The notes beneath the pieces were generated by a model. It saw only the letters and a list, made by a program, of their open reading frames with translations, ran no database searches and had not been told where the DNA came from. Shown here piece after piece: positions 4,231-46,216 of a stretch of DNA of 64,000 nt; position 1 is the stretch's first letter; the number at the start of each line of letters is the position of its first letter. The stretch covers positions 62,604,364-62,668,363 of the forward strand of contig CM060980.1 in the NCBI GenBank assembly GCA_030765065.1. Reading direction: 5' to 3'. This stretch comes from Deroplatys truncata. Lineage: Eukaryota > Arthropoda > Insecta > Mantodea > Mantidae. Both the position numbers and the translations under genes were made by a program.

Positions 4231-4319
4231 ATAACGAATTTGAGAAAAAGTATAAGTATTGGAAAATTTAAGAGAATAACAAGCAATATCTCGAAAATGG
4301 TTCACTCAAAAAAAAAAAA

Positions 4320-15870: not shown

Positions 15871-16035
15871 TATTTATTTAGTTCGCTTTAAGTCACTTGA
15901 ACATAATGTGTGTATTGCGAGTACATACATTAGGTTTCCAGATAGATTTGCACATTATGATAGATTTTATAAAACTGATAACATTTTTACATGGTTACAT
16001 TGTTAAGTATTTCCATACTACTTAAAATGGAGCAC

Positions 16036-16200: not shown

Positions 16201-16235
16201 GCATGACCACGAGAACAAAACGAATAGCGACTTAC

Positions 16236-16760
16236 CACTAGAAAGAAGTATACATATTTGAAAATTTAAACCATTAACAAATCATCTTGGAAATGCTTAA
16301 AGCAAAAAAACAAAAAAAAAAAAAAAATTAATTGACATATAAATTGTGTGCTATGGGACATCTACCTACATGTTTTGTGCAGTAAGATTTCGTCTATCTC
16401 TTACGACTTAGCAGTTATTTAAAAGTCATTCAGAATGAAGAGGGCTCCACAGGCTATTCCCAAAACATTCAAGATGTACAACTTATTTGTTATGCAAAAT
16501 ATCTTAAATATAGGTATGTTGTTTTCATCAAAATTACTGGAGCTGTTTTGTAGAAAATAAAAAAATAACGTGATTTTTTCATGTAAAGGGTAGTTTGGGG
16601 TGGGAATGTTTTTTTGAAAATCTACGCGTCACACATCCTTGTAAGACACTAAGCTAAGTACCAAGTTTGGTGTTTAACCGACTTTTCATTTTTGAGTTAT
16701 GATGTACACACACGCGAACGTGACCTTTTTCTAAAAATGTGTTGCATTCACATTTTCTTA
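16236..16760 (+). repeat. family A repeat, diverged forward copy
   Basis: Same landmark order as 3190-3700 (poly-A at 16303-16327, CATCTACCTACATGTTTTGTG, TCTATCTCTTACGACTTAGC, TTCATGTAAAGGGTAGTTTGGGG, ACACACGCGAACGTGACC) with heavy divergence. Confidence 0.7.
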
Positions 16761-16769: not shown

Positions 16770-17097
16770 CTAGAAAATACCTTTAAAAGTTTATTCTCCT
16801 ACCTACTTCTTGTTAATTGAGATAAACCTTCATTACAGATTTACACATTTCATTGTAAATATAAAAGGATACAGTAAGTTAAAATGATAGATTCTTTAAA
16901 AAAAGTGGATCGCTATGTGATGCCTTAGAAATTTTATGCCCTTTGCAGGAGCATGAGAAGAAAAGAATAGCGACTTACCACTTGTGAAGCATAACTATTT
17001 GAAAATTCAAACCAATAAAAACAGTATCTCGGAAATGTTATGGCACAAAAAAAGAAAGAGAAAAAAAGGACAAATTTTGTGCCTAAACGATATAAGT
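16770..17097 (+). repeat. family A repeat, interrupted forward copy at palindrome edge
   Basis: Begins in the distal family end (TTTAAAAGTTTATTCTCC, TTGTTAATTGAGATAAACC) and proceeds to GAATAGCGACTTACCACTT..AACTATTTGAAAATTC..CAGTATCTCGGAAATG, then stops at the outer tip of the giant inverted repeat (17100). A family A end fragment resumes beyond the other tip at about 34497. Confidence 0.6.
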
Positions 17098-17269
17098 AGT
17101 ATAGAATTGCGGGTTTACGCGCACCTAATATGCAGGAATGTCTATTCATATGCAAATGAGGTCCCCTCCCCCCTTTCCCCCTCCCACCCCAGCTCCTTGG
17201 TACTTTCAGTTGCAGCTGCGGGTTATAAATCTTGTTGAGTACAATGGAAGCTTGACAGTTAAGCAATTA

Positions 17270-17780
17270 AGGGTATCCTTCACCTGTCAAAACGAACAAA
17301 GAGGTCATAAACTTATGGCTATGTAACAAAGGCGAGGTGTTTTTCCTACCCATTCCACATCCGCCCACTTAGCAGCTCATCACCCCCCACTCCCATTGTT
17401 TCTCGAACACGTGGAGGAAGACATCCATCACTGTCAAAATGAACAATGAGGATGCAGGATAAAGGAAGAGATTCTATTGTGCCCCTTTCTATTGCCCGGT
17501 TCAAGGCTGCTTTAGAAAGACCATCTGGCATACTCATTCCACTAGCTTTTAACAAAAGAACAATGCTTGCCCTCAACTGTCAAAATGAACAAAGGCAATG
17601 ATAAATTAGGGTCGTGACAAAAGAGAACCTGAAGCCCGTTAACAAAGAAAACAAGTTCTATTGTATTTTCTTTCTTTGTCAGGGGCAAGGTTTCTTTCTG
17701 GCATTTCTCATTCCACTGCCCCATAACAAACCCGGTCCCTTTCCATTGTTTCTCGAACACCTGCTAGCTTAACAAAAGAA
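17270..17780. repeat. spaced subterminal repeats in left arm tip
   Basis: The motif CTGTCAAAAYGAACAAWG recurs at about 17284, 17433 and 17579, roughly every 145-150 bp, and TTGTTTCTCGAACACSTG occurs at about 17397 and 17746. The right arm repeats the layout in mirror image (33745-34195). Open frames of about 70 codons here exist in both arms but follow the repeat and are not supported as genes. Confidence 0.6.
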
Positions 17781-17968
17781 TCTGAGGGTGGCTTTATGCT
17801 CGCCCTGTCCTTGTTCGCGTGAAAGAGAGAGAAGTCTGTTTACCTACCTATATATATTTCATTACATTCATTAAACCTCTGGGTAGATATCCATAGATCG
17901 GTGTTCGATTCTTACTGTAATCAAAAGTTTATTGCTAATGAGAAATTGATGATTGATATTATATCATT

Positions 17969-18348
17969 CATTCATTCATTATCTGTTTACCCTCCTCTTA
18001 TGTAGGACTTACACCCCCCAGGACTTACAGGCGGGTGTCCTGGGGTCAGAGGCCCGTCGAGGAGCAGACACTCATGGATCAGACAGAACAGCCAGGATGG
18101 GGGATCAGCCCGATGCCTGGTATGGGATGAAGGAAGTAGATGAAACGAAATGTTGGTGAAATGGATGAAAGGAAAGGTGATGATGGAGCAGTTGGTGGAA
18201 TGAATGGCGGGGGAAACCGGAGAACCCGGAGAAAACCCGCCCAGACGCCGCTTCGTCCACCACAAATCCCACATGCAGGTCCCTGGGATTGAACCCGGGC
18301 CGCCTCGGTGGAAGGCGAGCAGTCTAACCACTCGACCAAGGCGCCGCT
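17969..18348 (-). mobile_element. tRNA-derived SINE C with 14-bp target duplication
   Basis: Flanked by GATATTATATCATT at 17955-17968 and 18349-18362. On the minus strand it starts with a tRNA-like head having A box TGGTCGAGTGG and B box GGGTTCAATCCC (about 18288-18299), followed by an about 300-bp body and a tail of ATGA-type repeats (plus-strand CATTCATTCATT). The right arm has the unoccupied site once (33373-33386 region), which proves that this is an insertion after the arms formed. The open frames on both strands at 17953-18339 belong to the SINE. Confidence 0.92.
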
Positions 18349-18362
18349 GATATTATATCATT

Positions 18363-19340
18363 ACCCTAATTAATAAAAAGGTGTTCAGAGGATTGTAGCT
18401 CAAATCTTACCAAGTGAAACTCTAATGCGAAATAACTATTAAACTATGCACCGCCAGATTAAAAATGTATTTAACAAATATAATTTAATTTTTTATTATT
18501 ATTACCCTAATTAATGAAAGGGTGTTCAGAGGGTTCTAGCTCGAATCTTACCCAGCGAAACTCTAATGCGCAATAACTATTAAACTATGCACGGTCAGAT
18601 TAAAATGTATTTAACAAACATAATTTAATTTTTTATTATCATTACCCTAATTAATGAAAGGGTGTTCAGAGGGTTCTAGCTCGAATCTTACCCAGCGAAA
18701 CTCTAATGCGCAATAACATTTAACTATGCACGGTCAGATTAAAATGTATTTAACAAACATAATTTAATTTTTATATATCATTACCCTAATTAATGAAAGG
18801 GTGTTCAGAGGGTTCTAAATCGAATCTTACCCAGCGCAACTCTAATGCGTAATAACTATTAAACTATGCAAGGTCAGTTTAAAATGTATTTAACAAATAT
18901 AATTATTTATATTAAACACAGGTATATACACTATGCAAGGTCAGATTAAAATGTATTTAACAAATATAATTATTTATATTAAACACCGATGTATACTTAG
19001 GTATCCAAATTGATACTTTGCTAAGGTAAAACATTATATCATTACACTGATTAATGAAAGGGTGTTCAGAGGATCCCAGCTCGAATCTGCGAAAGTCTAA
19101 TGCTTAATAAATATTAAACTATGGGAGTATGGGCGGGTAGATTAAAACGTGTTTAACAAATATAATTTAATTTATATGACATTACAATGTTTAACGAACT
19201 GTATTCTTAGGAACCCGGAGGCCCCTAGTTCGAATCTTACCTAGCGAAACGCTATAATAACTATTAAATTTTTGAGGCAGAAGCGGTCGGATTAAAATAG
19301 CAATTAACAAATATAATTTTTTATATTAAACCCTGATGCA
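18363..19340. repeat. about 140-bp tandem array with B-box-like core (left arm)
   Basis: Repeats of a unit containing TTACCCTAATTAATGAAAGG, TGTTCAGAGG, RGYTCGAATCTTACCCAGCG, CTCTAATGCG and TAACTATTAAACTATGCA. Unit starts are near 18361, 18503, 18645, 18780, 19040 and 19180, with a partial copy at 18900-19015. The right arm has fewer units (32735-33375). The core resembles a pol III B box (GTTCGAATC) but no full tRNA fold is seen. Confidence 0.8.
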
Positions 19341-19390
19341 TACTTAGATATCCCGATGCCTAGACGCCATTCTTTCTTCTTCTCACTTTT

Positions 19391-19510
19391 TCTGTCTGTC
19401 TATCTATCTGTCTATCTATCTGTCTATCTATCTGTCTATCCATCCATCCATCCATCCATCCATCCATCCATCCATCCATCCATCTATCTATCTTTCTATC
19501 TATTTCTTTC
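19391..19510. repeat. TCTG/TCTA/TCCA tetranucleotide tract (left arm)
   Basis: Consecutive TCTGTCTATC, then CATC units, then TCTATC. The matching site in the right arm (about 32655-32700) is contracted to a short AGAT/AAAG tract, so the arms differ in length here. Confidence 0.9.
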
Positions 19511-19519
19511 TTTCTTCTC

Positions 19520-20030
19520 GAGTTGCACACATTCAATCGTTCACATATACACGAGCACTTGTACACACAGGCACGTACATGCAAGCAAACACACACACAC
19601 ACACAGTCACACACCTCATACGTATACCTGTTCACTTACACATGCCAACACAAACTCACCCAAATGCACACACACATGCACAACCATACACACATATACA
19701 TGTTCACTTACACACACCAAAACATCACACGTACACACACACGCAAGCACATACACACACCAGTACACACACGCATTCGCACACCTCATGCGTATACATA
19801 TATACACCAGTGCTCTTACACTCACACATACACATACATGGACGCACACACACGCACGCATACACACATACAGGCACACACGCTCACGTGCATACATACA
19901 TACACCGTTACACTTGCACATACACACACATACACATATACCTGTATACTTACACATACCAACACCAACCCACACACGTACACGCATACACACGCATACA
20001 CCAACTCACGCACATGTCCTGAATGAAAAG
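19520..20030. repeat. cryptic CACA/TACA-rich block (left arm)
   Basis: About 500 bp of imperfect CA-rich simple sequence with longer-range repeats (GTTCACTTACAC at about 19630 and 19705). Open in several frames because it lacks stops; the 257-codon frame at 19356-20129 is read through it. Mirrored at 32085-32660, and a diverged relative sits in the spacer at 27240-27480 (GTTCACTTACACACATGAACACC). Confidence 0.85.
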
Positions 20031-20159
20031 AGACTAAATGATGCAATAAAAACTAATTATAAGCTTGGGATGCGACGTGTCATTTACGAATTGCTCGAAA
20101 CTGACCTGGATGCATGGCTCGAATCCTAGGAGTGATTACAAATTCATCTTCAAATAACT

Positions 20160-20900
20160 ACAAACTAATTAAGATAAAGACTGTAAATAAACTTTATTGC
20201 TTTCATGTCATTAGCTCGTTTCTTGTGAATGTATATTAGGGTACCAGGTGTCACGGCTTCGATCCTTAACTTTAAAATCACAATTATCTCAGGAACTAGC
20301 ATGGATAGAGGACGGGCCAAAGCATGATTGTTAGCTCCTATAATGGACAATTAATGCTTGTATATAATTTCCAATCAGTTGTCCCTAGTTCGAATCCCGA
20401 TCTTTCAGTAACTTCCTTAATTTTCCTCCGTACTCTTAGAATATATCACTTAGATCAATGTTGTAACTGCATAAAGGTCTTTTAAACATGTCAAACTAAT
20501 ATTATAAATAATTTTGTTTCTGCTGTTCTGAGTTCGAATACTGATTCAATGAAAGTTACTTATAAATTTAATAGCACAGTAAACAATTAAGGTAAAAGCA
20601 CCAAATAAACCTTATTACGTTTATCCCATCAGGTAGTATCTTGTGGGTGTATATTAGGGTACCTGACGTCCAGGATTCGATCCTTAAGTTTAAATTTCCA
20701 TTATCCCAGAAACTAGCAGAGATAGAGGTGTGGATGAAAGCATGTGTGTTAGCTCATACGATGAATAATTAATGCTGTATATAATTTCCAATCAGTTGCC
20801 CCTAGTTCGAATCCTGATCTTTCAATGACTTCCTTAATTTTCCTCTGTACTCTAGAATATATCACTTAGATTGATGCTGTAACTTCATGCAGCTTGTGTA
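20160..20900. repeat. about 420-bp tandem duplication with TTCGAATC motifs (left arm)
   Basis: Two diverged copies, about 20163-20490 and 20588-20895, share GTATATTAGGGTACC, TTCGATCCTTAA, TATATAATTTCCAATCAGTTG, CCCTAGTTCGAATCC, CTTCCTTAATTTTCCTC and AATATATCACTTAGAT. The mirrored pair in the right arm is at 31220-31960. Confidence 0.82.
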
Positions 20901-20919
20901 AAGACATTATACATGTACT

Positions 20920-21060
20920 CTGAGAGAGCGAGAGAGAGAGAGGAAGTGAAACAAAGAGGGTTAGAAGTGCTGAGAGCCTCTGCGCACGCGCAAGAGATAA
21001 TTCCACTGGTGTAATAATCGCGTGATGTGTAAGCTACGACAGGCGTGGTACTAGATATAG
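20920..21060. repeat. (GA)n tract and unique arm segment
   Basis: GAGAGAGCGAGAGAGAGAGA at 20922-20943, then a segment rich in CpG (CTGCGCACGCGC) shared with the right arm at 31060-31185. Confidence 0.7.
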
Positions 21061-21850
21061 CAGCTAGAGTGAGGGCCTCAATATATCATTCAGCTACAGA
21101 AACATCAGACGCAGACTGAACAATGACCGTAGCAGAAGCAAATACAACAGCTACCGCTGCAGATCATCAGCTGTACAACAATGGATGTAACAGATCCTGC
21201 AGCTGTAGCAGCATCCGCTACAATAATAGCAGTGGCAATAGCCGGTTACATAGCAGCTGTAGCAGCAGCAGCAGCTAATCCATTTTTGTTAAAGTGCAGT
21301 AGCTTAATCAATTAAATCATTGCTTCATTAAACAATGATTGAGCAGCTGTAGCATTCGCATTACATAACATCTGTAGCAGCAGCTATAGATTTAGCAGTC
21401 TTAGCTATATCAAGTATCGCTGCAATGATATTCCAGCTATAGATTCACCTAGCACAGCAGCAGCTGTAACATCAAATACGATAGCTGCAGCAGCAGCAGC
21501 AGCAAATCCTGTGACTATAGATTCAACATCCTCAGCAAGAGCAAGCATCACAACAACGGCAACATCAAACACGACAGATGTAGCGGCAGATACAGCATCT
21601 ACAATGATGGCCTCAATATATCATTCAGCTACAGAAACATCAGCCGCAGCCTGCACAATGCCCGTAGTAGAAGCAAATACAACAGCTACCGCTGCAGATA
21701 CAGCAGCTGTACAACAATGGATGTAACAGATCCTGTAGCAGTGGCAACAATCGGTTACATAGCAGCTGTAGTAGCAGCTAATGCATTTTTGTTCAAGTGC
21801 ATTAGCTTTATCAATTAAATCATTGATTCATTAAACAATGATTGTAAGGG
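21060..21850. repeat. GCA/GTA-rich block with about 530-bp internal duplication (left arm)
   Basis: Trinucleotide-like AGCAGCTGTAGC sequence. The segment TCAATATATCATTCAGCTACAG..GCAGAT..TGTACAACAATGGATGTAACAG occurs at about 21079-21205 and again at about 21612-21735. A 71-codon plus-strand frame at 21511-21726 (Ala/Thr/Ser-rich) has an identical product from the right arm (30376-30591, minus). I treat it as repeat translation; see findings. Confidence 0.75.
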
Positions 21851-21904
21851 TAGATGTCGCTCCCCTTTATCTAAGTTTGAGACTAGCGCTAGTATTTGCT
21901 TCTA

Positions 21905-22510
21905 ATGACATGGTTTGTTGAGAAAATCATGTGAATGTCAATAGATGAATGTGTTGAGAAAACCATATGAATGTTTGCAGAAGAACGTGTAGTGAAATCA
22001 TATGAATGTCAGACGAATGTGTTGAGAAGATCACGTGAATGTTTATGCAAGAAGAACGTGTAGCGAAAATCATATGAATGTTATTAGAAGAATGCGAGTA
22101 GAAATCATAGAAGAGTGTATGGGAAAAATCATATGAATGTTAATAGAAGAATGTGATGAAAATATCATATGAAGGTTTGCAGAAGAACGTTAGTGAAACC
22201 ATATGAATGTTAATAGAAGAATGCGAGGAAAAATCATGTGAATGTCAATAGATAAATGTGTTGAGAAAACTATATGAATGTTTACAGAAGAACGTGTAGC
22301 GAAAATCATATGAATGTTAATAGAAGAATGCGAGGAGAAATCATGTGAATGTTTATGCAAGAAGAACGTGTAGCGAAAATCATATGAATGTTAGTAGAAG
22401 AATGCTAGGAGAAATCATGTGAATGTTTACAGAAGAACGTGTAGCGAAATCGTATGAATGTTAATAGAGGAAGAATGATTAGAGATTAAGTATGAATGTT
22501 TATGCAGACA
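21905..22510. repeat. about 37-bp minisatellite with CATATG/CATGTG cores (left arm)
   Basis: Unit of the form AATCATRTGAATGTTNRYAGAAGAAYGTG repeated about 15 times with alternating sub-variants (GCGAGGAGAAATC and GTGTAGCGAAAATC). The right arm carries a shorter version (29735-30185). Confidence 0.85.
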
Positions 22511-22533
22511 TCTAAGAACTATTTTACACCCTT

Positions 22534-23510
22534 GATGTGAGACGGTAATTTGTATCACAAATTACTTTAATGTAAATAATTATTTACATATGAATATGTA
22601 TTTTTATGTAACATTGATTTCAGAGGTTTAATAATTGTAATTATTAATGGTAAATAATAATTTTCGGCTCTACTGAAACTGTTAACAATAACAGTACTGC
22701 AATGAAGGGTTTGAGTTGTTTATCGTTACCGGGAACCAGGAAGTTACGTAATGTTTCGCGCCTTTTCAGTAAAAAATTGCTTCCAGAATGTTCTATAAAA
22801 GTAATATGTATTAGTGGTTTTCATTGGATAGTAAAATAGACGCTAATGTTGGCGCGTTTTATTAGCCAATGGTAATTCATTTATAATCTTTAGGTGTATA
22901 TTGGGTCAAGCCTATAAATAGCCATGCTCGAAGTCAAGCGTCCCCTAGTTCGGCAAGATTCACGAAGCATTACACATCGTCTCCCGCTCAGCTCATCAAA
23001 GATTCGTGTACAATACGTGACTACATGTCGCCTATCGGTCCTTCAGTTCGTTAAATTACACGCAGTGAAAATCATTAAAGATCTAAAATATTACAAAGTC
23101 ACTTATATACAAAAATTGAAGTACGTGAGTTAAAAGTGAGAAGTTATGATAAACAGTTTCAGTATGGCGATCATCTAGATAAATCTGTGAAAGTGTTAGT
23201 GCACGTGTTCGACAATAAAACATTATAAAACACATTTCATCACTAGTAATTTTTTTTGATAAAAGATTCCTTTTCCGCTTCACACCCTGCAAGAATTAAA
23301 TGCCTACCTAAATAGCTGGCCGGAAGACAATATACATAACCTTAAAACTAATTCATATAGATTGCTACGTCAGAGGGAACTACGAGCCAGACCAACGAAT
23401 GACGTCACACGAGATGGCTGCACTAGTGAGGTAAACAACATTACGTGAGAAACATTATCCACCACGTGGGGACACAAATACACAAATACACACTATACAT
23501 CTCTCAGATG
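22534..23510 (+). mobile_element. solo LTR of gypsy-type family, GATG target duplication
   Basis: LTR 22538-23506 (969 bp) begins TGAGACGGTAATTTG and ends CATCTCTCA (TG...CA), with GATG at 22534-22537 and 23507-23510. It resembles the LTRs of 46217-50430: a shared GTAATTTGTATCACAAATTAC start, promoter TATAAATA at 22913-22920, and polyadenylation signal AATAAA at 23214-23219. The right arm has the intact empty site (CTTTCATCAAGGG at about 29697-29709). Open frames inside it are not genes. Confidence 0.92.
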
Positions 23511-23630
23511 AAAGCGCTACATGTTTTAACAATTCTGATGTTAATTATTAAAGAAATGAAAAATTCAGATAAACGATATGGCCCTCTTGCAATGATTCGT
23601 GTTTCACTTAGTCCTGTAAAAAACTCACTC

Positions 23631-23639
23631 ACCTTGCAT
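23631..23639 (-). CDS. outward-facing mini first exon, left arm (partial)
   Basis: On the minus strand, TATATAAA at 23768-23761 is followed about 120 bp later by ATGCAAG|GTGAGT: ATG at 23639-23637 and donor GT at 23632-23631. The right arm has the same arrangement on the plus strand. The start resembles the spacer gene's exon 1 (ATGATGCAAG|GTGAGT). I could not identify the next exon, which would lie toward 17100. It could be non-functional because the solo LTR (22538-23506) sits about 125 bp downstream, inside the presumed intron. Confidence 0.4.
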
Positions 23640-23760
23640 TATGTAGATGACGATGGATGCAGTCTAGAAGACAATAGCGCTGAATTGGATTAAGCTGAAT
23701 CACTAACATGTAACGCTAACTTAATAAAGTCGCAGTGGCTTCCTTATCCACCAACGCTTG

Positions 23761-23768
23761 TTTATATA
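23761..23768 (-). promoter_or_regulatory. TATA box of outward promoter, left arm
   Basis: TATATAAA on the minus strand, about 130 bp upstream of ATGCAAG|GTGAGT. Identical in the other arm (29442-29449). Confidence 0.45.
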
Positions 23769-24574
23769 AGGACCTAGAACCCCTCAGGCAATTTCATGCG
23801 TTGGTATGTCGGTAACTAAACAAGTGAGAAAATCTTCTATGCTATTTGTTAAGTGTATGTTTCTAAGCATTGAGTCAATAGAGATGGAGAGGGTGCAGAG
23901 GGTAACGGTTGTGCCATGATTGAATGATATCTAGCGAAATGAGAGACAGTTAGGTATGCAAAGAATTTAAATATGTTGTTAGAGCCATGCATTATGTCTC
24001 TCGGCGAGGTTATATATGCCAGGAGTTAATATGCACAGTCAATTAAAATGCATTATGTACAAGAAACCAGTTTTCGTACAATCGTTTAGAGTCGAATTAA
24101 ATGATTGATCTACATTCATGTTACACAATTAAAAGACATTGATGTGACTGAAATGACTGAAATAAGAATATAAAAGCTGCATTCATAGAATTTTATAAAA
24201 AAATGTTTGCGAAATCTCAATTTCGATTTTTTTTTAAATTTAATTATATCTATCACACTGAAATAGCGATTGATACACAAATCTATGTGTTTCATTTTAC
24301 ATGAATCATGACAAAAAATGTAATTCTTTTCAGCTTAACTGCACTTCCTCTCTGCACTGCAATGATTACTGTAAACATATAAAAACTGCAATACATGAGA
24401 CAGAGGTTTACGTGTAAATACTTTTTCTTAATAATTAAACTATGCAATATGGTCAGTGTAGCGATGTAACATTTCTACCAGCCAAATTACTAGATGCTGC
24501 ATAGGGTCGAATATTTTCTATTAATATACTTCTTAACTAAAATGAATTGACTCTATGTTGGAAGTCTCGGTAAA

Positions 24575-25430
24575 CAGCAGGATTGTTTATTCGGTAAGCA
24601 GGTTCTTTCTTGTATATATCACTGAAAGGGAGTGAGAGCTGTTACCTATTCACATGCATGTTACGTATGCGTGTGCTCAACTGGTGAAAAGAATGTCTAA
24701 AATATGACATATGGTGTTTAAGAGCATTCCTTAACGTTACAAAAACACTGTCCTTCTGTGCAAAGGATTGTTTGACAGATACGTCTGCGTATAGATACCC
24801 TCTCTATTCAATGCAGAACTCATTGCATCTACACTAGCCCGTTGCATTCAGAAGGGCCTGTTATTCCACAATTCTGTATTCATAGCATAGCTAATATATT
24901 CTCTCTAAAGAATGAAAGCTGTGACTTTCACGTTAAATGAATGTTACCCTGCCGTGCTATAAGGTGAAGTATATTGTCTCTTGCATTCATTACAGAAAAA
25001 GCAGGACTGTTTGTTCGGTAAGCTGGTTGTCCCTTGTATAACTTAAAAGGGAATGAAGCCTGACATCTATTCACAACCTCTGACGGATAGGAGAGCTCAA
25101 TCGATGAAAAGAATGCTGTGGGTGGTTATAGCAATGTCTGAAAGCTATTTCTTCCCTCCCCCCACAGAACCAGTACAAAAAATGTTAAAGTATGGGAATA
25201 TGTAGTACGTTGTTTAAGGACATTTCCCTGGCTAACAGAAAGAAGGCCTAGCTACAGGCAAAGGTTTGTTTGCCTTGAACTCTCATGCATGGGGTGGTCC
25301 CTACACTATTTAATGAAAAAAACTCATTGTTCCTACGCTAACCCTCCCGCTAGCAGGAGCATATGTTATTCTGCAAGGATTGTATCCGCTGTCTAGCTAA
25401 TATATTTTCTAAGACAATAAGCCAGTGACA
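24575..25430. repeat. about 425-bp tandem duplication crossing the inner palindrome boundary
   Basis: Copy 1 at about 24580-24990 and copy 2 at about 25000-25430 share AGCAGGAYTGTTTRTTCGGTAAGC, CTTGTATA, AAAGGGARTGA, TATTCACA, GAAAAGAATG, and AGCTAATATATTTTCT/TTCTCT. Only the first copy and the start of the second are mirrored in the right arm; the palindrome stops inside copy 2 at 25119. Confidence 0.75.
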
Positions 25431-25528
25431 TGCTCTCTCTGTTGCTTCTTCACTCTAAAATGAAACAATGAGAAAGAATTGGGATGCGTGTGAAAGAATC
25501 GGGAGCATTACTTGGAAGAACCGAATGC

Positions 25529-25537
25529 ATATAAATG
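25529..25537 (+). promoter_or_regulatory. TATA box of spacer gene
   Basis: ATATAAATG, about 110 bp upstream of the ATG at 25642. A possible initiator ACAGTC lies about 40 bp downstream (25570-25575). Confidence 0.55.
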
Positions 25538-25641
25538 CTGAAATTCTGTGCGAGATGTTTATACTTGCTTAACAGTCTTTGCTTGAGGGAGTTAAGTCTA
25601 GTTTATCGTGTATAGTCCAGTGCGAGTGCTTTCAACATATA

Positions 25642-27234
25642 ATGATGCAAGGTGAGTTTTGTTATTGTATGATTTAAAATGTTTTCATTACCTCTAGCAT
25701 AGTTGTTTAAATTAAAAAATACACATGCAGTGGTCTAGAAAAATCGCGCTTAACTATCGATTTTTTGAATAATTTGAAACTTGTGAATGTGCTGTGAAAG
25801 CATGCATTCGGAGTCTTTGCTTGAGGTAGTTAAGTCTCGTGTATTGTGTCTAGTTCAGTGCGAGTGCTTTCAGCATATAATGATGCAAGGTGAGTTTTGT
25901 TATTGCATGATTTAAAATGTTTTCATTACCTCTACCATGTTTGTTTAAATTAAAAAATACATATGCAGTATTCTAGAAAAATCGCTCTTAGCTATCGATT
26001 TTTATTGAATAATTCGAAACTCGTGAATGTGCTGTGAAAGTGTGCATTCGGATTACTGAATGTAAACCTCCAATTCAAGCATTTAAGACATGAATACACT
26101 ATTCTCTTTCCTAAATGCATTTTTTCTGTATGTTACATTAAGTATAATAGAAGACAATTTTTATTTTAAACTTTTCACTTACGTTCTGTATAACAGCTTA
26201 TATTTTCGATTTTTTAGGAAAATCTAGCCAGGAATCATCAGTGGTGATAGAGGTTAACGACCGAATGCCCACTGCAATGAGCAACGTCTCTACGGTGATT
26301 GAAGGTAAGGAATACGCTATTCTCTTTTTCCTAAATCTGCATATATTTTTTCATAACTCACATTAAAACGTTAAGAGTGCACAATTTTTTTAAAAAAAGT
26401 TTCACTGATAAATTATGTGCTATATAGTGATTTTTTCTGTTTATTTAGGGGGGGCTGAATCCTATCTAAGCCAGTGGTATGTGAACGGGCATATGCCTAG
26501 ACCCGAGAGCAACGCCTCTTCGGTGATTGAAGGTAAGGAATACGCTATTCTCTTTTTCCTAAATTGGCATATATTTTTTCATAAATCACATTAAAACATA
26601 GGAGTACATTGTTTCAATGCACCTCATGACTAGTTTTATTAATTAAAATGATCGTTTTTATAATATTTTAGTGTATAGCAATATCGAGAAAAAGTTAATG
26701 AAATGTTTTTTTACAGGAACTTCATTTAATATAGCAACCCCGAATTGGCTAATGTCAAGGTTTATAATGGACTTAATTAACGTTCAATCACTGCCCATGT
26801 CTTGTACTCATCAATGTCCGTCTGCTGCCGGTAAGCATAATCAATAACTTTATTTATTTCTTCTAGAATAATGACAATCTCTAATTTCAAGCGAATTGTT
26901 TTGTTAAAATATGTTATTATACGTTTCAGGTAATTAATTATCATTGCCATCATCATCGCAATCTTCTTCTTCTTCACCCGAACAGCGACACGCTCATTCG
27001 TTTTCATCAGCATCAACAATACGGCTACAGGAAGTAACTCCTGAAGCCATAACAAGAGAAATCATTATTCGGTCACCGATTGAAACAAGCAACACACACA
27101 GACACATCCCATACACTACAAACGCAAGACGCAGGCTAAATTTTGATTCACCTCCTTCAGTTTTACCGCCACTCCCTCCATTAATTCCTATTAATAGAAA
27201 CGCGCTATTGAGGCTCCGCAGGATGCAGCAATAG
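25642..27234 (+). CDS. five-exon spacer gene with phase-1 duplicated exons, unknown function
   Basis: Predicted exons are 25642-25651 (ATGATGCAAG), 26218-26304, 26449-26532, 26717-26830 and 27011-27234. All introns interrupt codons after base 1 (…G|GTRAG). The summed length is 519 nt, exactly 173 codons with stop TAG at 27232-27234. Exons 2 and 3 are homologous, ending SNVSTVIEG and SNASSVIEG, and their donors continue into near-identical intron starts (GTAAGGAATACGCTATTCTC). Exon 4 has the only two cysteines (SCTHQC). Exon 5 is Pro/Arg-rich with an LPPLPPL stretch near the end. No signal peptide or known domain seen. The stronger-looking acceptor at 26928-26929 would instead add only two residues' worth of sequence before an in-frame TAA (26935-26937), giving 100 residues. 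The promoter lies upstream and a polyadenylation signal at 27958. I do not recognise the family; the gene-like architecture is observed, function is unknown. Confidence 0.6.
25816..25889 (+). other. duplicated alternative first exon of spacer gene
   Basis: An about 239-bp tandem duplication (about 25577-25815 and 25816-26054) repeats the 5' UTR and ATGATGCAAG|GTGAGT start (second copy at 25880-25889). Either copy splices in frame to exon 2. The second copy lacks an obvious TATA box. Confidence 0.6.
26085..26135 (+). other. degenerate third copy of the exon-flanking intron motif
   Basis: AATACACTATTCTCTTTCCTAAATGCAT..TTTTTTCTGTATGTTACATTAA matches the intron starts after exons 2 and 3, without a preserved GTAAG donor. 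It suggests a lost additional exon duplicate. Confidence 0.45.
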
Positions 27235-27665
27235 CCATACACTGACATGCAGACACATCTGCACACATACATCAACACGCATACGCATATACCCGTTCAC
27301 TTACACACATGAACACCAAACCACAGACATATACAATCACGCACACACACACACGCGCACACGCGCGCACACACACACACACAAGCGCGCATATACCCGC
27401 TCACTTACATATACATGAATGTACACATGGTTCTGGACACGCTAACATACATTCATACGTCAATCAGGCTCTACAAACATGCCTCGCCATTACTGTATCG
27501 TTTTCATTCATTAATTCATTCATTTCAAGCATAAAAATTCAAGGAAAAAACATCAATAACAGACGAAGGTAAGCCTATTTTTGTTTCAAATTTTCGAGTC
27601 CTTAAAGAACAATCAATTTTTAACATCGTTTCCATTTAACATGATTTTATGTTTAATTCTTTCAG
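27235..27665 (+). other. 3' region of spacer gene: CA-rich block and possible intron
   Basis: CA-rich sequence (27240-27480) related to the CA blocks in both arms, followed by CGAAG|GTAAGCC (donor GT at 27569) and TTTCAG|ATTGAATG (acceptor AG at 27664-27665), a possible 97-bp intron in a 3' UTR or alternative last exon. An 87-codon frame at 27309-27572 reads through the CA repeats and is not called. Confidence 0.4.
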
Positions 27666-29441
27666 ATTGAATGATCATGCACATACTTAACTGTGAAAAC
27701 TCGTTGCATACTCTAGCCAAGCAGTAATGAATTATAACATAATGTAACTCGGTGAATATTGATGTGACATATAAATCATTGATACTAACATCTTAGTACA
27801 ACTCTACGGTCGACAATGCAGACTAACGAATAATTGTAGCGTTCACGGATTCATTCTGAATCTTATTACATTCTTTATTAAACATTAAAGACTTGTTTTT
27901 TCTCTGTAAACAAACAAATGTCAGCTAATGAATCTTTGAAAAAATGTAGAGAGAAAAAATAAAAAACTCTGTTATTGGAGGAATGAAATCATGTGTTTTT
28001 ATTTATAATTATTTCCTTAAAAACAATCCTGCCTATGAATAGATGAAGATTATAACAAATACACTGAAATGTACTACAATTCGCAACAGCATTCTTTTCA
28101 TCGATTGAGCTCTCCTATCCGTCAGAGGTTGTGAATAGATGTCAGGCTTCATTCCCTTTTAAGTTATACAAGGGACAACCAGTTACCGAATAAACAGTCC
28201 TGCTTTGTCTGTAATGAATGCAAGAGACAATATACTTCACCTTATAGCACGGCAGGGTAACATTCATTTAACGTGAAAGTCACAGCTTTCATTCCTTAGA
28301 GAGAATATATTAGCTATGCTGTGAATACAGAATTGTGGAATAACAGGCCCCTCTGAATGCAACGGGCTAGTGTAGATGCAATGAGTTCTTCATTGAATAG
28401 AGAGGGTATCTATACGCAGACGTATCTGTCAAACAATCCTTTGCACAGAAGGACAGTGTTTTTGTAACGTTAAGGAATGCTCTTAAACACCATATGTCAT
28501 ATTTTAGACATTCTTTTCACCAGTAGAGCACACGCATACGTAACATGCATGTGAATAGGTAACAGCTCTCACTCCCTTTCAGTGATATATACAAGAAAGA
28601 ACCTGCTTACCGAATAAACAATCCTGCTGTTTACTGAGACTTCCAACATAGAGCCAATTCATTTTTAGTTAAGAAGTATAGTAATATTAATAGAAAATAT
28701 TCGACCCTATGCAGCATCTAGTAATTTGGCTGGTAGAAATGTTACATCGCTACACTGACCTTATTGCATAGTTTAATTATTAAGAAAAAGTATTTACACG
28801 TAAACCTCTGTCTCATGTATTGCAGTTTTTATATGTTTACAGTAATCATTGCAGTGCAGAGAGGAAGTGCAGTTAAGCTGAGAAGAATTACATTTTTTGT
28901 CATGATTCATGTAAAATGAAACACAAAGATTTGTGTGTCAATCGCTACTTCAGTGTGATAGATATAATTAAATTTAAAAAATTCGAAATTGAGATTTAGC
29001 AAACATTTTTTTTATAAAATTCTATGAATGCAGCTTTTATATTCTTATTTCAGTCATTTCAGTCACATCAATGTCTTTTAATTGTGTAACATGAATGTAG
29101 ATCAATCATTTAATTCGACTCTAAACGATTGTACGAAAACTGGTTTCTTGTACATAATGCATTTTAATTGACTGTGCATATTAACTCCTGGCGTATATAA
29201 CCTCGCCGAGAGACATAATGCATGGCTCTAACAACATATTTAAATTCTTTGCATACCTAACTGTCTCTCATTTCGCTAGATATCATTCAATCATGGCACA
29301 ACCGCTACCCTCTGCACCCTCTCCATCTCTATTGACTCAATGCTTAGAAACATACACTTAACAAACAGCATAGAAGATTTTCTCACTTGTTTAGTTACCG
29401 ACATACCAACGCATGAAATTGCCTGAGGGGTTCTAGGTCCT

Positions 29442-29449
29442 TATATAAA
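29442..29449 (+). promoter_or_regulatory. TATA box of outward promoter, right arm
   Basis: TATATAAA, mirrored exactly in the left arm (23761-23768). Confidence 0.45.
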
Positions 29450-29570
29450 CAAGCGTTGGTGGATAAGGAAGCCACTGCGACTTTATTAAGTTAGCGTTAC
29501 AGGTTAGTGATTCAGCTTAATCCAATTCAGCGCTATTGTCTTCTAGACTGCATCCATCGTCATCTACGTA

Positions 29571-29577
29571 ATGCAAG
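29571..29577 (+). CDS. outward-facing mini first exon, right arm (partial)
   Basis: ATGCAAG followed by donor GTGAGT (GT at 29578-29579), about 120 bp downstream of the TATA box. Mirrors 23631-23639 and resembles the spacer gene exon 1. Downstream exons, if any, would lie in 29.7-34.4 kb; none was identified with confidence. Confidence 0.4.
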
Positions 29578-29734
29578 GTGAGTGAGTTTTTTACATGACT
29601 AAGTGAAACACGAATCATTGCAAGAGGGCCAATCGTTTATCTGAATTTTTCATTTCTTTAATAATTAACATCAGAATTGTTAAAACATGTAGCGCTTTCA
29701 TCAAGGGTGTAAAATAGTTCTTAGATGCCTGCAT

Positions 29735-30190
29735 AAACATTCATACTTAATCTCTAATCATTCTTCCTCTATTAACATTCATACGATTTCGCTACTCGTT
29801 CTTCTGTAAACATTCACATGATTTCTCCTCGCATTCTTCTATTAACATTCATATGATTTTCGCTACACGTTCTTCTGTAAACATTCATATGGTTTTCGGA
29901 ACACATTCCTCTATTGACATTCACATGATTTCTCCTCGCATTCTTCTATTAACATGCATATGGTTTCAATAACGTTCTTCTGCAAACCTTCATATGATAT
30001 TCTCATCACATTCTTCTATCAACATTCATATGATTTTCGCTACACGTTCTTCTTGCATAAACATTCACATGATCTTCTCAACACATTCGTCTGACATTCA
30101 TATGATTTCACTACACGTTCTTCTGCAAACATTCATATGGTTTTCTCAACACATTCCTCTATTGACATTCACATGATTTTTCTCAAGAAA
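29735..30190. repeat. about 37-bp minisatellite (right arm)
   Basis: Mirror image of 21905-22510 with fewer units (CATTCATATGATTTTCGCTACACG, TTCTTCTATTAACATTCATATG and similar). Confidence 0.85.
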
Positions 30191-30249
30191 CACTCATTAG
30201 AAGCAAATACTAGCGCTAGTCTCAAACTTAGATAAAGGGGAGGGACGTC

Positions 30250-31060
30250 TACCCTTACAATCATTGTTTAATGAATCAATGATTTAATTGATAAAGCTAA
30301 TGCACTTGAACAAAAATGCATTAGCTGCTACTACAGGTGCTATGTAACCGATTGTTGCCACTGCTACAGGATCTGTTACATCCATTGTTGTACAGCTGCT
30401 GTATCTGCAGCGGTAGCTGTTGTATTTGCTTCTACTACGGGCATTGTGCAGGCTGCGGCTGATGTTTCTGTAGCTGAATGATATATTGAGGCCATCATTG
30501 TAGATGCTGTATCTGCCGCTACATCTGTCGTGTTTGATGTTGCCGTTGTTGTGATGCTTGCTCTTGCTGAGGATGTTGAATCTATAGTCACAGGATTTGC
30601 TGCTGCTGCTGCTGCAGCTATCGTATTTGATGTTACAGCTGCTGCTGTGCTAGGTGAATCTATAGCTGGAATATCATTGCAGCGATACTTGATATAGCTA
30701 AGACTGCTAAATCTATAGCTGCTGCTACAGATGTTATGTAATGCGAATGCTACAGCTGCTCAATCATTGTTTAATGAAGCAATGATTTAATTGATTAAGC
30801 TACTGCACTTGAACAAAAATGGATTAGCTGCTGCTGCTGCTACAGCTGCTATGTAACCGGCTTTTGTCACTGCTATTATTGTAGCGGATGCTGCTACAGC
30901 TGCAGGATCTGTTACATCCATTGTTGTACAGCTGATGTATCTGCAGCGGTAGCTGTTGTATTTGCTTCTGCTACGGTCATTGTTCAGTCTGCGTCTGATG
31001 TTTCTGTAGCTGAATGATATATTGAGGCCCTCACTGTAGCTGCTATATCTAGCACCACGC
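30250..31060. repeat. GCT/TAC-rich block with internal duplication (right arm)
   Basis: Mirror of 21060-21850. Includes the 71-codon minus-strand frame (30376-30591) whose product is identical to that of the left arm. Confidence 0.78.
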
Positions 31061-31219
31061 CTGTCGTAGCTTACACATCACGCGATTATTACACCAGTGG
31101 AATTATCTCTTGCGCGTGCGCAGAGGCTCTCAGCACTTCTAACCCTCTTTGTTTCACTTCCTCTCTCTCTCTCTCGCTCTCTCAGAGTACATGTATAATG
31201 TCTTTACACAAGCTGCATG

Positions 31220-31970
31220 AAGGTACAGCATCAATCTAAGTGATATATTCTAGAGTACAGAGGAAAATTAAGGAAGTCATTGAAAGATCAGGATTCGAAC
31301 TAGGGGCAACTGATTGGAAATTATATACAGCATTAATTATTCATCGCATGAGCTAACAAACATGCTTTCGTTCACACCTCTATCTCTGCTAGTTTCTGGG
31401 ATAATGGAAATTTAAACTTAAGGATCGAATCCTGGACGTCAGATACCCTAATATACACCCACAAGATACCACCTGATGGGATAAACGTAATAAGGTTTAT
31501 TTGGTGCTTTTACCTTAATTATTTACTGTGCTATTAAATTTATAAGTAACTTTCATTGAATCAGTATTCGAACTCAGAACAGCAGAAACAAAATTATTTA
31601 TAATATTAGTTTGACATGTTTAAAAGACCTTTATGCAGTTACAACATTGATCTAAGTGATATATTCTAAGAGTACGGAGGAAAATTAAGGAAGTTACTGA
31701 AAGATCGGGATTCGAACTAGGGACAACTGATTGGAAATTATATACAAGAATTAATTGTCCATCATAGGAGCTAACAATCTTGCTTTGGCCCGCTCCTCTG
31801 TCCATGCTAGTTTCTGAGATAATTGTGATTTTAAAGTTAAGGATCGAAGCCGTGACACCTGGTACCCTAATATACATTCACAAGAAACGAGCTAATGACA
31901 TGAAAGTAATAAAGGTCATTTACAGTCTTTATCTTAATTAGTTTGTAGTTATTTGAAGATGAATTTGTAA
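31220..31970. repeat. about 420-bp tandem duplication (right arm)
   Basis: Mirror of 20160-20900, including GGATTCGAACTAGGG and GATTCGAACTAGGGAC B-box-like motifs in reverse orientation. Confidence 0.82.
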
Positions 31971-32084
31971 TCATTCCTAGCATTCGAGCCATGCATGCAG
32001 GCCAGTTTCGAGCAATTCGTAAATGACACGTCGTATCCCAAGCTTACAATCAGTTTTTATTGCATCATTTTGTCTGTTTTCATT

Positions 32085-32660
32085 CAGGACCTGTGCGTGA
32101 GTTGGTGTATGTGTGTGTATGCGTGTACGTGTGTGGGTTGGGGTTGGTGTTGGTGTGTGTAAGTATACAGGTATATGTGCATGTGTGTGTATGTGCAAGT
32201 GTAACGGTGTATGTATGTACGTGAGCGTATGTGCGTGTGTATGCGTGCGTGTGTGTGCGTCCATGTATGTGTATGTGTGAGTGTAAGAGCACTGGTGTAT
32301 GTATGTATACGCATGACGTGTGTGAATGCGTGCGTGTACTGGTGTATGTATGGGCGTGTGTGTATGTGCTTGCGTGTGTGTGTACGTGTGATATGTTGGT
32401 GTGTGGTTGTGCATGTGTGTGAACTTGTGTTGGCGTGTGTAAGTGAACAGGTATACGTATGAGGTGTGTGACTGCGTGTGTATGTGTGTGTGTGTGTTAG
32501 CTTGCATGTACGTGAGTTTGTGCGTGTATGTGCTTGCATGTACATGTGTGCGTGTATGTGCTTGCATGTACATGTGTGCGTGTACTGGTGTATGTTTTCT
32601 GACGTGTGTACAAGTGCTCGTGTATATGTGAACGATTGAATGTGTGCAAGTCGAGAAGAA
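32085..32660. repeat. GTGT/TGTA-rich block (right arm)
   Basis: Mirror of 19520-20030 but about 70 bp longer at its distal end owing to repeated CATGTACATGTGTGCGTGTA-type units (about 32535-32600). Open frames here (such as 198 codons, 31977-32573 minus) read through simple sequence. Confidence 0.85.
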
Positions 32661-32734
32661 AGAAAGAGATAGATATATAGATAGAAAGAAAAAGAGAGAA
32701 GAAAGAATGGCGTCTAGGCATTGGGATATCTAAG

Positions 32735-33375
32735 TATGCATCAGGGTTTAATATAAAAAATTATATTTGTTAAATGCAATTTTAATCCAACCGCTCCTGC
32801 CTCAATAATTTAATACTTATTATAGCGTTTCGCTGGGTAAGATTCGAACTAGGGGCCTCCGGGTTCCTAAGAATACAGCTCGTTAAACATTGTAATGTCA
32901 TATAAATTAAATTATATTTGTTAAACACGTTTTAATCTACCCGCCCATACTACCATAGTTTAATATTTATTAAGCATTGGAGTTTCGCAGATTCGAGCTA
33001 GGATCCTCTGAACACCCTTTCATTAATCAGTGTAATGATATAATAATGTTTTACCTTAGCAAAGTATCAATTTGGATACCTAAGTATACATCGGTGTTTA
33101 ATATAAATAATTATATTTGTTAAATACACTTTAATCTGACCTTGCATAGTTTAATAGTTATTACGCATTAGAGTTGCGCTGGGTAAGATTCGATTTAGAA
33201 CCCTCTGAGCACCCTTTCATTAATTAGGATAATGATATATAAAAATTAAATTATATTTGTTAAATACATTTTTAATCTGGCGGTGCATAGTTTAATAGTT
33301 ATTACGCATTAGAGTTTCACTTGGTAAGATTTGAGCTACAATCCTCTGAACATCTTTTTATTAATTAGGGTAATG
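32735..33375. repeat. about 140-bp tandem array (right arm)
   Basis: Mirror of 18363-19340 with about four full units instead of six to seven. Confidence 0.8.
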
Positions 33376-33649
33376 ATATAATATCAATCATCAATTTCTC
33401 ATTAGCAATAAACTTTTGATTACAGTAAGAATCGATCACCGATCTATGGATATCCACGCAGATGTTTAATGCATGTAATGAAATATATATATAAAACGCC
33501 TTTTCGGAGTCGCTGCTTGAAATAATCCAAACAGAATGCTTGTTAACTATGCTCGGATATATTCGTAGGATCTCGTAAAACATCGGAGAGAACAGCTCCT
33601 CAAGGCAAAAACCATGATGGCTGACTCTGACGTTGTTAAAAGTGTTCAC
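33365..33649 (-). other. right-arm-only segment with 94-codon open frame
   Basis: The minus-strand frame runs from 33649 to 33365. The N-terminal half (about 33495-33649) lies in the stretch that the left arm lacks, replaced there by the join TTTACCTA|CCTATATATAT at about 17845. Composition is normal (FCLEELFSPMFYEILRIYPS), unlike the repeat frames. No acceptor/donor pair was verified and no family is recognised. It may be a surviving exon of an arm gene or chance. Confidence 0.3.
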
Positions 33650-34381
33650 GTATATTAGGTAAACAGACTTCTCTCTCTTTCACGCGAACAAGGACAGGGC
33701 GAGCATAAAGCCACCCTCAGATTCTTTTGTTAAGCTAGCAGGTGTTAGAGAAACAATGGAAAGGGATCGGCTTTGTTATGGGGCAGTGGAATGAGAAATG
33801 CCAGAAAGAAAATACAATAGAACTTGTTTTCTTTGTTAACGGGCTTCAGGTTCTCTTTTGTTACGACCCTAATTTATCATTGCCTTTGTTCATTTTGACA
33901 GTTGAGGGCAAGCATTGTTCTTTTGTTAAAAGCTAGTGGAATGAGTATGCCAGATGGTCTTTCTAAAGTAGCCTTGAACCGGACAATAGAAAGGGATACA
34001 ATAGAATCTCTTCCTTTGTCCTGCATCCTCATTGTTCATTTTGACAGTGATGGATGTCTTCCTCCACGTGTTCGAGAAACAATGGGAGTGGAGGTGATGA
34101 GCTGCTAAGTGGGCGGATGTGGAATGGGTAGGAAAAACATCTCGCCTTTGTTACAGAGCCATAAATTTATGACCCCTTTGTTCGTTTTGACAGGTGAAGG
34201 TTACCCTTAATTGTTTAACTGTCAAGCTTCCATTGTACTCAACAAGATTTATGACCCTCAGCTGCAACTAAAAGTACCAAGGAGCTGGGGGTGGGAAGGG
34301 GAAAGGTGGGAGGGGACCTCATTTGCATATGGATAGACATTCCTACATATTAAGTACGCGTAAACCCGGAATTCTATAGCA

Positions 34382-34383
<2 letters not shown>

Positions 34384-34430
<47 letters not shown>
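34384..34430. repeat. (TA)n microsatellite at palindrome tip
   Basis: About 47 bp of TA dinucleotide immediately outside the right outer tip. Confidence 0.95.
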
Positions 34431-35150: not shown

Positions 35151-35159
35151 GGGAAAAAA

Positions 35160-46212: not shown

Positions 46213-46216
46213 TCTT

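What the first reader, a model, noticed from the sequence alone, without database searches (positions are those of the whole stretch)
17100..34378. Giant inverted repeat (8.0 and 6.3 kb arms) around a unique 2.97-kb gene-bearing spacer
The two arms are colinear reverse complements over their full length, with outer tips in TA-rich DNA and family A fragments on both sides. No transposase, polymerase or integrase is visible inside, so ordinary DNA-transposon, Polinton or viral explanations do not fit directly. Candidates are a Foldback-like element (long arms made of tandem repeats, variable loop), an ampliconic palindrome, or an inverted duplication.
Basis: partly seen in the sequence, partly recalled or inferred. 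Interest (0 to 1): 0.87.

Follow-up and report, generated by a model that had tools for sequence, protein, structure and literature searches.

The report
Non-autonomous Maverick with giant inverted repeats
A 17-kb palindrome-like stretch is a jumping element descended from the virus-like Maverick transposons: it lost their enzymes, grew very long mirror-image ends, and carries between them a small spliced gene that seems broken in this copy.

Summary
The inverted repeat is real: arms 17095-25119 (8.0 kb) and 28086-34383 (6.3 kb), loop 2966 bp. It is a dispersed mobile element. Its ends begin AGT..., with a 6-bp target duplication (GATATA) on both sides. Four other loci show arm-loop-arm. A 16-base tip motif occurs 253 times (5 control hits). 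Of 23 element pairs examined, 14 have identical 6-bp target duplications and 3 match at 5 of 6; among 506 mismatched pairings none matched at 6 and 10 at 5. (AGT)2//(ACT)2 ends plus 6-bp duplications are published hallmarks of Mavericks/Polintons. Two elements of 18.0 and 19.0 kb with the exact tip motif carry Maverick genes (PolB in one; packaging ATPase and PLA2/PX-like in the other). The 19.0-kb one has 2.0-kb terminal repeats homologous to the window's outer 2.3 kb of arm. So this is a foldback-shaped, non-autonomous Maverick. Loops vary: three sister elements keep pieces of the Maverick's virion-gene side; the window's subfamily carries a spliced orphan gene, interrupted in the window copy. 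Arm borders differ among copies. I infer a satellite-like element moved by helper Mavericks. The foldback guess was right in shape; setting Polintons aside was wrong. New variant of a known kind.

The parts
17089..17094 (.). left 6-bp target-site duplication GATATA
   Evidence: identical to 34384-34389
17095..34383 (.). whole element, 17,289 bp; AGTAGTATAG at the left, AGTGCTATAG at the right (read inward)
   Evidence: many genome hits of the 17040-17640 query begin at query base 54-56, that is at 17093-17095
17095..25119 (+). left arm
17095..19383 (+). outer part of the left arm, homologous in segments to the 2.0-kb terminal repeat of a Maverick (C1:258093932-258112887)
   Evidence: arm bases 1-2289, segments mostly 68-93% identical
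17969..18348 (-). later insertion, tRNA-SINE-like; 14-bp duplication GATATTATATCATT at 17955-17968 and 18349-18362; empty site in right arm
   Evidence: the tRNA-like reading is by eye, ARAGORN found no tRNA
18356..18904 (+). 140-bp tandem array in the arm
21916..22472 (+). 36-bp tandem array in the arm (mirror copy 29774-30180)
22538..23506 (+). later insertion, solo-LTR-like (TG...CA, GATG duplication at 22534-22537 and 23507-23510), absent from right arm
24170..25119 (+). arm extension: loop sequence in C15, C16a and C2, present in both arms in the window
   Evidence: C15, C16a and C2 keep another right-hand junction
25120..28085 (+). loop (spacer)
25530..25536 (+). TATA-like box upstream of the loop gene
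   Evidence: read from sequence
25642..25651 (+). loop gene, exon 1 coding part ATGATGCAAG|gtgagt (a 238-bp tandem duplication gives a second copy near 25880)
26218..26304 (+). loop gene, exon 2
26449..26532 (+). loop gene, exon 3 (two copies of this exon in the C11, C16a and C16b elements)
26717..26830 (+). loop gene, exon 4
26930..27234 (+). loop gene, last exon; acceptor TTTCAG kept in all 7 other rows read; the window copy has an in-frame stop at 26935-26937 where others read on
   Evidence: my first model started this exon at 27011, an acceptor not kept in copies
28086..34383 (-). right arm
34384..34389 (.). right 6-bp target-site duplication GATATA

Best explanation
It is a non-autonomous derivative of a Maverick/Polinton family that is abundant in the same genome. 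Shown: Maverick-type ends, 6-bp target duplications, arm tips homologous to the terminal repeats of a Maverick with virus-type genes, dispersed copies of the same layout, and loops in sister elements that retain pieces of such Mavericks. Inferred: the Maverick integrase inserts it in trans, and the Maverick protein-primed polymerase replicates it from its two like ends. Its giant arms arose when a replication or repair strand started at one Maverick end, switched templates and copied back to the same end (end to X, then Y back to the end). That step deleted the polymerase side and turned a 2-kb terminal repeat into a 6-8 kb one. Later template switching or conversion between arms shifted the arm/loop border in several copies. 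The loop of this subfamily carries a small spliced gene whose last exon looks constrained among copies, so it probably served the element; its function is unknown and the window copy looks broken.
For: Duplications: 14 of 23 pairs match 6/6, 3 match 5/6, 6 do not match; mismatched pairings 0 of 506 at 6/6 and 10 of 506 at 5/6 (tips placed by eye; first readings). The six failures each have a further shared module outside at least one tip. Published hallmarks: (AGT)2//(ACT)2 ends and perfect 6-bp duplications (PMC8097293, passages). Exact tip: 253 places vs 5 for the control; of the 100 places listed, 22 neighbouring pairs are convergent and 1 divergent within 30 kb. Exact-tip Mavericks: C1:258093932-258112887 (TSD AACAGC) with Pox_A32 ATPase 29.3 bits, PLA2-like 49.3 bits, PX 21.8 bits (below its cut-off of 25); C5:170343569-170361569 (TSD CACCTG) with PF03175 PolB 53.2 bits. 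C1's terminal repeats (1998 bp, 98.8%) match the window's arms in segments. Remnant loops: C4 and C16_395 match the C5 Maverick at 79% and 77%, C9 at 79-85% (C5 and C1 pieces) with two PX-like frames, 25.9 and 24.5 bits, cut-off 25, at similar distances from the tip. Border shifts. The two arms of a copy are sisters with support 0.97 or more for the window and C16a in all segments read, C16b at the tip, C2 in one segment.
Against: The window element shows no Maverick gene, and its loop matches none of the 13 sampled pieces except arm-derived and AC-rich parts, so the origin of its loop gene is open. Six of 23 pairs lack a target duplication. Integrase was not sampled in the two exact-tip Mavericks. 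Copy-back is read from layout only; gene conversion or crossing-over after insertion could also move the borders. The window copy of the gene has an early in-frame stop in its last exon, one C2 copy has a stop there too, C2 and C1 each have a changed splice border, and exons 2 and 4 show no codon-position bias. C1 and C2 tips do not pair by copy in the tree of the tip segment.
Confidence: 0.88

Rival explanations
1. Classical Foldback element of the Mutator or P superfamily, with arms of tandem repeats and a variable loop, mobilised by a MULE or P transposase.
For: Shape: long arms with 140-bp and 36-bp tandem arrays and a variable loop. Most foldbacks are said to belong to Mutator (PMC4079207, passages).
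Against: Target duplications are 6 bp, not 8-10 bp; ends are AGT...; tips are homologous to those of a Maverick.
Confidence: 0.05
2. The giant arms did not arise by copy-back replication but by slow expansion of an ordinary terminal repeat, through crossing-over or gene conversion between arms after insertion.
For: Arm/loop borders differ in both directions among copies. Arm identity rises inward in three segments (window 94.9, 98.0, 99.1%; C16a 98.0, 98.6, 99.5%; C2 92.6, 95.9, 97.2%), as conversion near the hairpin centre would give.
Against: C4 and C9 each hold one Maverick end, a loop from beside it, and the same end again, a layout that a single copy-back step explains.
Confidence: 0.4
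3. Two ordinary Mavericks, or two solo terminal repeats, inserted head to head by chance and later rearranged.
For: Repeats are clustered here; some tips are flanked by a further shared module of about 0.55 kb.
Against: Arm-loop-arm order recurs at four other loci and one target duplication flanks the whole unit.
Confidence: 0.03
4. Ampliconic palindrome or host inverted duplication around a host gene, kept by gene conversion.
For: Arms are similar and identity rises inward; the loop holds a spliced gene.
Against: Copies on many chromosomes with target duplications; no homologue at E <= 0.001 in the protein collection.
Confidence: 0.02
5. Assembly artefact (false palindrome).
For: Raw reads could not be checked.
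Against: Arms differ by about 5%, carry private SINE-like and LTR-like insertions with empty sites opposite, and the layout recurs.
Confidence: 0.02

Closest known systems
Maverick/Polinton elements (polintoviruses, adintoviruses)
   Same: AGT-type ends, 6-bp target duplications, overall size (17.3 kb; intact vertebrate elements 12.7-24.6 kb, mean 16.9), arm tips homologous to a Maverick's 2.0-kb repeats.
   Different: No polymerase, integrase, ATPase, protease or capsid gene found in the window element; arms of 6-8 kb against 46-1447 bp in vertebrate Mavericks and 2.0 kb in the relative here; loop gene with introns, whereas intact vertebrate Mavericks have intronless ORFs.
Foldback-type elements (FB, Galileo, Tetris)
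   Same: Long arms with internal tandem repeats, variable middle, non-autonomous. That foldbacks may arise in separate TE lineages by loss of the transposase and TIR elongation is in print (PMC4079207, passages).
   Different: Tetris has 8-10 bp duplications and a middle without coding capacity; Galileo is of the P superfamily (abstract start). Here Maverick-type, 6 bp, coding loop.
Copy-back/snap-back defective genomes of protein-primed linear DNA viruses such as adenovirus (recalled, not from a call)
   Same: One genome end duplicated in inverted orientation around a single-copy loop; needs helper enzymes.
   Different: Here integrated, dispersed and old enough to have diverged; layout only, no replication intermediate shown.
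Cargo-carrying nematode Mavericks (wosp proteases, krma kinases; meeting report PMC10680173, passages)
   Same: Mavericks carrying extra non-core genes.
   Different: Here the core genes are gone and the cargo is an orphan.
Teratorn (piggyBac-herpesvirus fusion of fish)
   Different: Other virus and transposase, 41-182 kb, 18-bp terminal repeats.

Membership tests
Maverick/Polinton (as a non-autonomous member) | 6-bp target-site duplication | tested here: met
   Window GATATA; 14 of 23 pairs 6/6, 3 of 23 5/6, 6 of 23 none
Maverick/Polinton (as a non-autonomous member) | (AGT)2//(ACT)2-type termini | tested here: met
   AGTAGTATAG left; AGTGCTATAG right, where the second AGT is not perfect; motif from PMC8097293
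Maverick/Polinton (as a non-autonomous member) | termini homologous to those of a Maverick with core genes in the same genome | tested here: met
   the family's 16-base tip is that of C1:258.09M and C5:170.34M, which hold PolB, ATPase and PX/PLA2 frames; the window's own tip shares its first 12 bases
Maverick/Polinton (autonomous) | PolB, integrase, ATPase, protease and capsid genes inside | tested here: not met
   41 frames of 70+ codons read by eye, 21 of them scanned with Pfam: no such family. It is not filed as an autonomous Maverick
Maverick/Polinton (as a non-autonomous member) | mobilised in trans by Maverick enzymes | not testable with these tools
   needs experiment or insertion polymorphism
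Foldback (structural class) | long terminal inverted repeats with internal tandem arrays, variable loop, no transposase | tested here: met
Foldback of the Mutator superfamily | 8-10 bp target duplications | tested here: not met
   6 bp
Copy-back defective genome | both ends derived from the same end of the parent; loop adjacent to it in the parent | tested here: inconclusive
   C4 and C9 fit; for the window only the arm tips and the inner arm (24162-24333, 75-77% to C4) are anchored
Ampliconic palindrome | single-locus inverted duplication of host sequence without target duplication | tested here: not met

The most novel reading that the evidence does not exclude
Mavericks in this genome have spawned satellite-like defective genomes of copy-back type that became stable germline elements: they keep only one Maverick end, duplicated and inverted, use helper enzymes, and in at least one subfamily have acquired a spliced gene of their own that was under selection. 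Their arm/loop borders shift as the inverted repeats of protein-primed linear genomes would be expected to.
Probability: 0.35. Interest if true: 0.8.

Novelty: new variant of a known kind. Interest (0 to 1): 0.62.

Why it matters
It gives foldback architecture a likely origin in the Maverick lineage, with gene-bearing Mavericks, gene-retaining derivatives and gene-free end products in one genome. That makes a question testable: do protein-primed virus-like transposons throw off defective or satellite genomes in animals, and do these carry genes selected for their own spread or for curbing the helper? It also warns repeat annotation: such elements would be missed by searches for Maverick genes. 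In three searches of the held library (listings, with passages of three of the listed papers read) I saw no paper describing non-autonomous Mavericks with such arms; that is a limited search.

Tried and rejected
Rejected: chance head-to-head insertions, host palindrome, Mutator foldback, assembly artefact (see rivals). Corrected on re-checking: my first gene model (172 aa) began the last exon at 27011; one search shows that the acceptor kept in copies lies at 26929|26930, and that the window copy then meets an early stop. Searches with the 172-aa protein therefore lacked about 27 residues of that exon. Also, the script misplaced a tip in C16_272, C16_289, C16_473 and C8; re-read all four have 6/6 duplications. 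In some searches the fourth 'intron' stretch held 56 bases of the last exon; one search repeats the comparison without them. Led nowhere: Pfam on the 172-aa protein (E 0.25), protein collection search (80 candidates, none at E <= 0.001), Rfam (0 matches), tRNA finder (0), tblastn of the protein against 13 Maverick and sister pieces (no hit), PHROGs on C9 frames (one at 0.06), solved-structure search for the protease-like frame (3 weak matches at 0.37-0.46, one a viral cysteine protease, two interferon gamma; Pfam Peptidase_C5 0.11), so 'protease-like' is only a lead. Mavericks at C3:71.46M and C12:63.38M begin AGTAGTATATACCCC at the left tip, sharing the first 9 bases with ours; the right end was not found. 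Organism not identified: the COX1 search did not complete. Left out of the arm comparison: C13 (multiplied loop, no right arm in the tiles), C11 and C15 (only partly covered). Ends of C16b and C13 could not be read for duplications.
Full report
THE OBSERVATION. With the termini fixed, the element is 17095-34383: left arm 8025 bp, loop 2966 bp, right arm 6298 bp, flanked by GATATA on both sides. Two pieces exist only in the left arm, each with its own target duplication and an empty site in the right arm: a tRNA-SINE-like piece and a 969-bp TG...CA solo-LTR-like piece. The element is therefore older than both.

IT IS A DISPERSED ELEMENT. A 601-bp piece across the left arm/loop border gives 41 matching rows, itself included, on many chromosomes; a 351-bp piece over the last exon gives 27, itself included. 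I read 10-kb tiles around seven other loci. Four (C16:494.4M = C16a, C2:24.8M, C1:148.97M, C16:351.4M = C16b) show left arm, loop and inverted right arm, with gaps; C13:198.2M has a left arm and a multiplied loop; C11 and C15 were only partly covered. The outer tip query gave 3398 first-look candidates, of which 40 were scored, all 87% or more identical. Of those 40, 28 lie on C16, a 707-Mb sequence that is 16% of the genome (31 of 43 rows; binomial on the rows about 1e-15). Tips of one element are not independent and only the best were scored, so this may concern the best-scoring copies only.

THE ENDS ARE MAVERICK ENDS. Inward-read termini begin AGTAGTATAG or variants. A passage in a vertebrate Maverick survey gives (AGT)2//(ACT)2 ends and perfect 6-bp target duplications as their features (PMC8097293). 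I examined both ends of 23 elements: 4 from tiles, 9 from the tip search, and the first ten inward pairs of the exact-tip listing apart from one already read (the second of a tandem pair on C5 comes after the first seven and was passed over). With tips placed by eye, 14 of 23 have identical 6-bp duplications, 3 of 23 have one mismatch, 6 of 23 do not match; among 506 mismatched pairings 0 match at 6 and 10 at 5. The six failures (C2, C1, C5, C1_175, C4_238, C5_199) each have a shared outer module, with CTTAG within a few bases of the tip, on one or both sides. Ends of C13 and C16b could not be read. The exact 16-base tip occurs 253 times against 5 for the reversed control; among the 100 places listed, 22 neighbouring pairs point inward and 1 outward within 30 kb, the inward ones 6.0-19.3 kb long.

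MAVERICKS WITH CORE GENES ARE PRESENT. Protein-primed PolB (PF03175) is abundant: 11882 first-look candidates, 76 scored, many with open frames of 1260-1280 codons. Two elements with the exact tip and identical duplications, 18,956 and 18,001 bp, were sampled inside. Their pieces are 95.8-97.6% identical in opposite orientation, with long open frames. Pfam finds PolB (53.2 bits, cut-off 25.8) in the C5 element and, in the C1 element, packaging ATPase Pox_A32 (29.3, cut-off 22.8), PLA2-like (49.3, cut-off 23.9) and Adeno_PX (21.8, below its cut-off of 25). Integrase was not sampled in them; in the Mavericks at C3/C12 an integrase-like frame is recognised by eye only. The terminal repeats of the 18,956-bp element are 1998 bp at 98.8%, and they match the outer 2.3 kb of the window's left arm in segments, mostly 68-93% identical.

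LOOPS ARE VARIABLE AND SOME ARE MAVERICK REMNANTS. Five other tip elements were sampled in the middle. C4 and C16_395 share a loop (92%); C16_474 has a short loop partly made of the 36-bp repeats; C8 is only 4.3 kb; C9 has two PX-like frames, 25.9 and 24.5 bits against a cut-off of 25. C4 and C16_395 loops match the C5 Maverick at 79% and 77%, and C9 matches C5 and C1 pieces at 79-85%. Distances from the tip are similar: C4 5.4-6.0 kb vs 4.4-5.1 kb in the Maverick; C9 PX 6.5-7.2 kb vs 5.9-6.6 kb. So these elements keep one Maverick end and its neighbourhood, then turn back to the same end. The window's inner arm (24162-24333) matches C4's inner arm at 75-77%, but its loop matches none of the sampled pieces apart from AC-rich stretches.

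ARM BORDERS DIFFER. In C15, C16a and C2 the loop ends ...CATAAACCCAAATTATAA and then enters the reversed arm near 24169; in the window the loop breaks off right after AATTCGCA and enters the reversed arm at 25119, so about 950 bp that is loop in those copies is arm here. C16a, C11, C16b and C2 instead carry 130-970 bp of the right loop end, inverted, on the left arm; in C1 and C16b the loop lies the other way round. In trees the two arms of one copy are sisters for the window and C16a in all segments where both were read, for C16b at the tip and for C2 in the middle segment; at the tip C1 and C2 are mixed (C2 left is closer to C1), so I do not claim it for all. Arm identity rises inward in the window, C16a and C2.

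THE LOOP GENE. A TATA-like box and five exons can be read. Borders are kept in the other copies read, except a changed donor of exon 2 in C2 and a changed acceptor of exon 4 in C1. The acceptor of the last exon kept in 7 of 7 other rows is at 26929|26930; with it the window copy stops at 26935-26937, so this copy looks broken, while others read on. No transcript was available. My earlier 172-aa model used another acceptor; with it no Pfam family and no homologue was found. In the last exon (27013-27231) 24 of 28 pairwise dN/dS values are 0.16-0.48, three are 0.9 or more with few changes, one undefined; one identical and one partial row were dropped, and pairs are not independent. Codon-position counts over exons 2-5 give p = 0.04, from exons 3 and 5; exons 2 and 4 show no bias. 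A C2 copy has a stop in the last exon. Unexpectedly, exons differ more than introns in 20 of 21 pairs, 16 of them with p < 0.05 (window vs C16a: introns 28 of 495, exons 60 of 565), also at synonymous sites (with the flaw named under Tried and rejected). I cannot explain this. The peptide RRRLNF is kept in all nine other rows; it resembles a cyclin-docking RxLxF motif (recalled, untested).

MECHANISM. Most likely: a defective Maverick genome that keeps one end twice, so that it still offers both origins and both integrase sites, moved by helper enzymes. Shown: ends, duplications, parentage of the tips, remnant loops in sisters. Inferred: helper mobilisation, copy-back origin, service of the loop gene. 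A rival for the arms is slow expansion by recombination.

NOVELTY. That foldbacks may arise by TIR elongation in separate TE lineages is in print, mostly for Mutator (PMC4079207, passages). Cargo in Mavericks is known (PMC10680173, passages). A search for non-autonomous Polintons/Mavericks gave three papers, each holding only the phrase 'Polinton-derived' (listing); the foldback-Polinton search gave twelve (listing; two of them, PMC4079207 and PMC6431247, seen in passages) and an earlier one fourteen (listing; PMC8097293 and PMC6431247 seen in passages). I rate it a new variant of a known kind. The re-check raised the count of duplications and showed the window's gene to be broken; I left the odds as they were, since the one strengthens and the other slightly weakens the reading.

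Noticed in passing
window 46215-47234 and 49412-50431: Direct repeats of about 1.02 kb, 98.4% identical, 3.2 kb apart start to start; looks like an LTR retrotransposon, with coiled-coil-like frames on the minus strand.
   Followed up: partly
window 12292-13571: Long minisatellite with an 8-bp period, open in several frames; not a gene.
   Followed up: no
window 2820-6407, 14611-16750, 35154-35933: Family A repeats in both orientations; the inverted pair on either side of the element is only 74% alike, so they look like flanking repeats, not part of it.
   Followed up: partly
L015, L018, L043, L044, L047, L065, L072, L073, L076, L077: Some AGTAG tips are flanked outside by a shared module (about 0.55 kb where measured), on one or both sides; the six such pairs examined lack a 6-bp duplication. 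Possibly a longer terminal repeat.
   Followed up: partly
window 26218-27231 and copies: Loop-gene exons diverge faster than its introns in 20 of 21 copy pairs.
   Followed up: partly
G000:C16: 28 of the 40 best-scored tips lie on this 707-Mb sequence, 16% of the genome.
   Followed up: partly
window 29430-29590 (+) and mirror in left arm: Arms carry an outward TATA-like box and an ATGCAAG|gtgag start resembling exon 1 of the loop gene (by eye); 23717-23812 matches a stretch just inside the C1 Maverick's terminal repeat at 87%, reversed.
   Followed up: partly
G000:C3:71.46M and C12:63.38M: Near-identical (99.8-99.97% in pieces) Mavericks, left tip AGTAGTATATACCCC; the C3 copy lacks a stretch near its tip.
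   Followed up: partly
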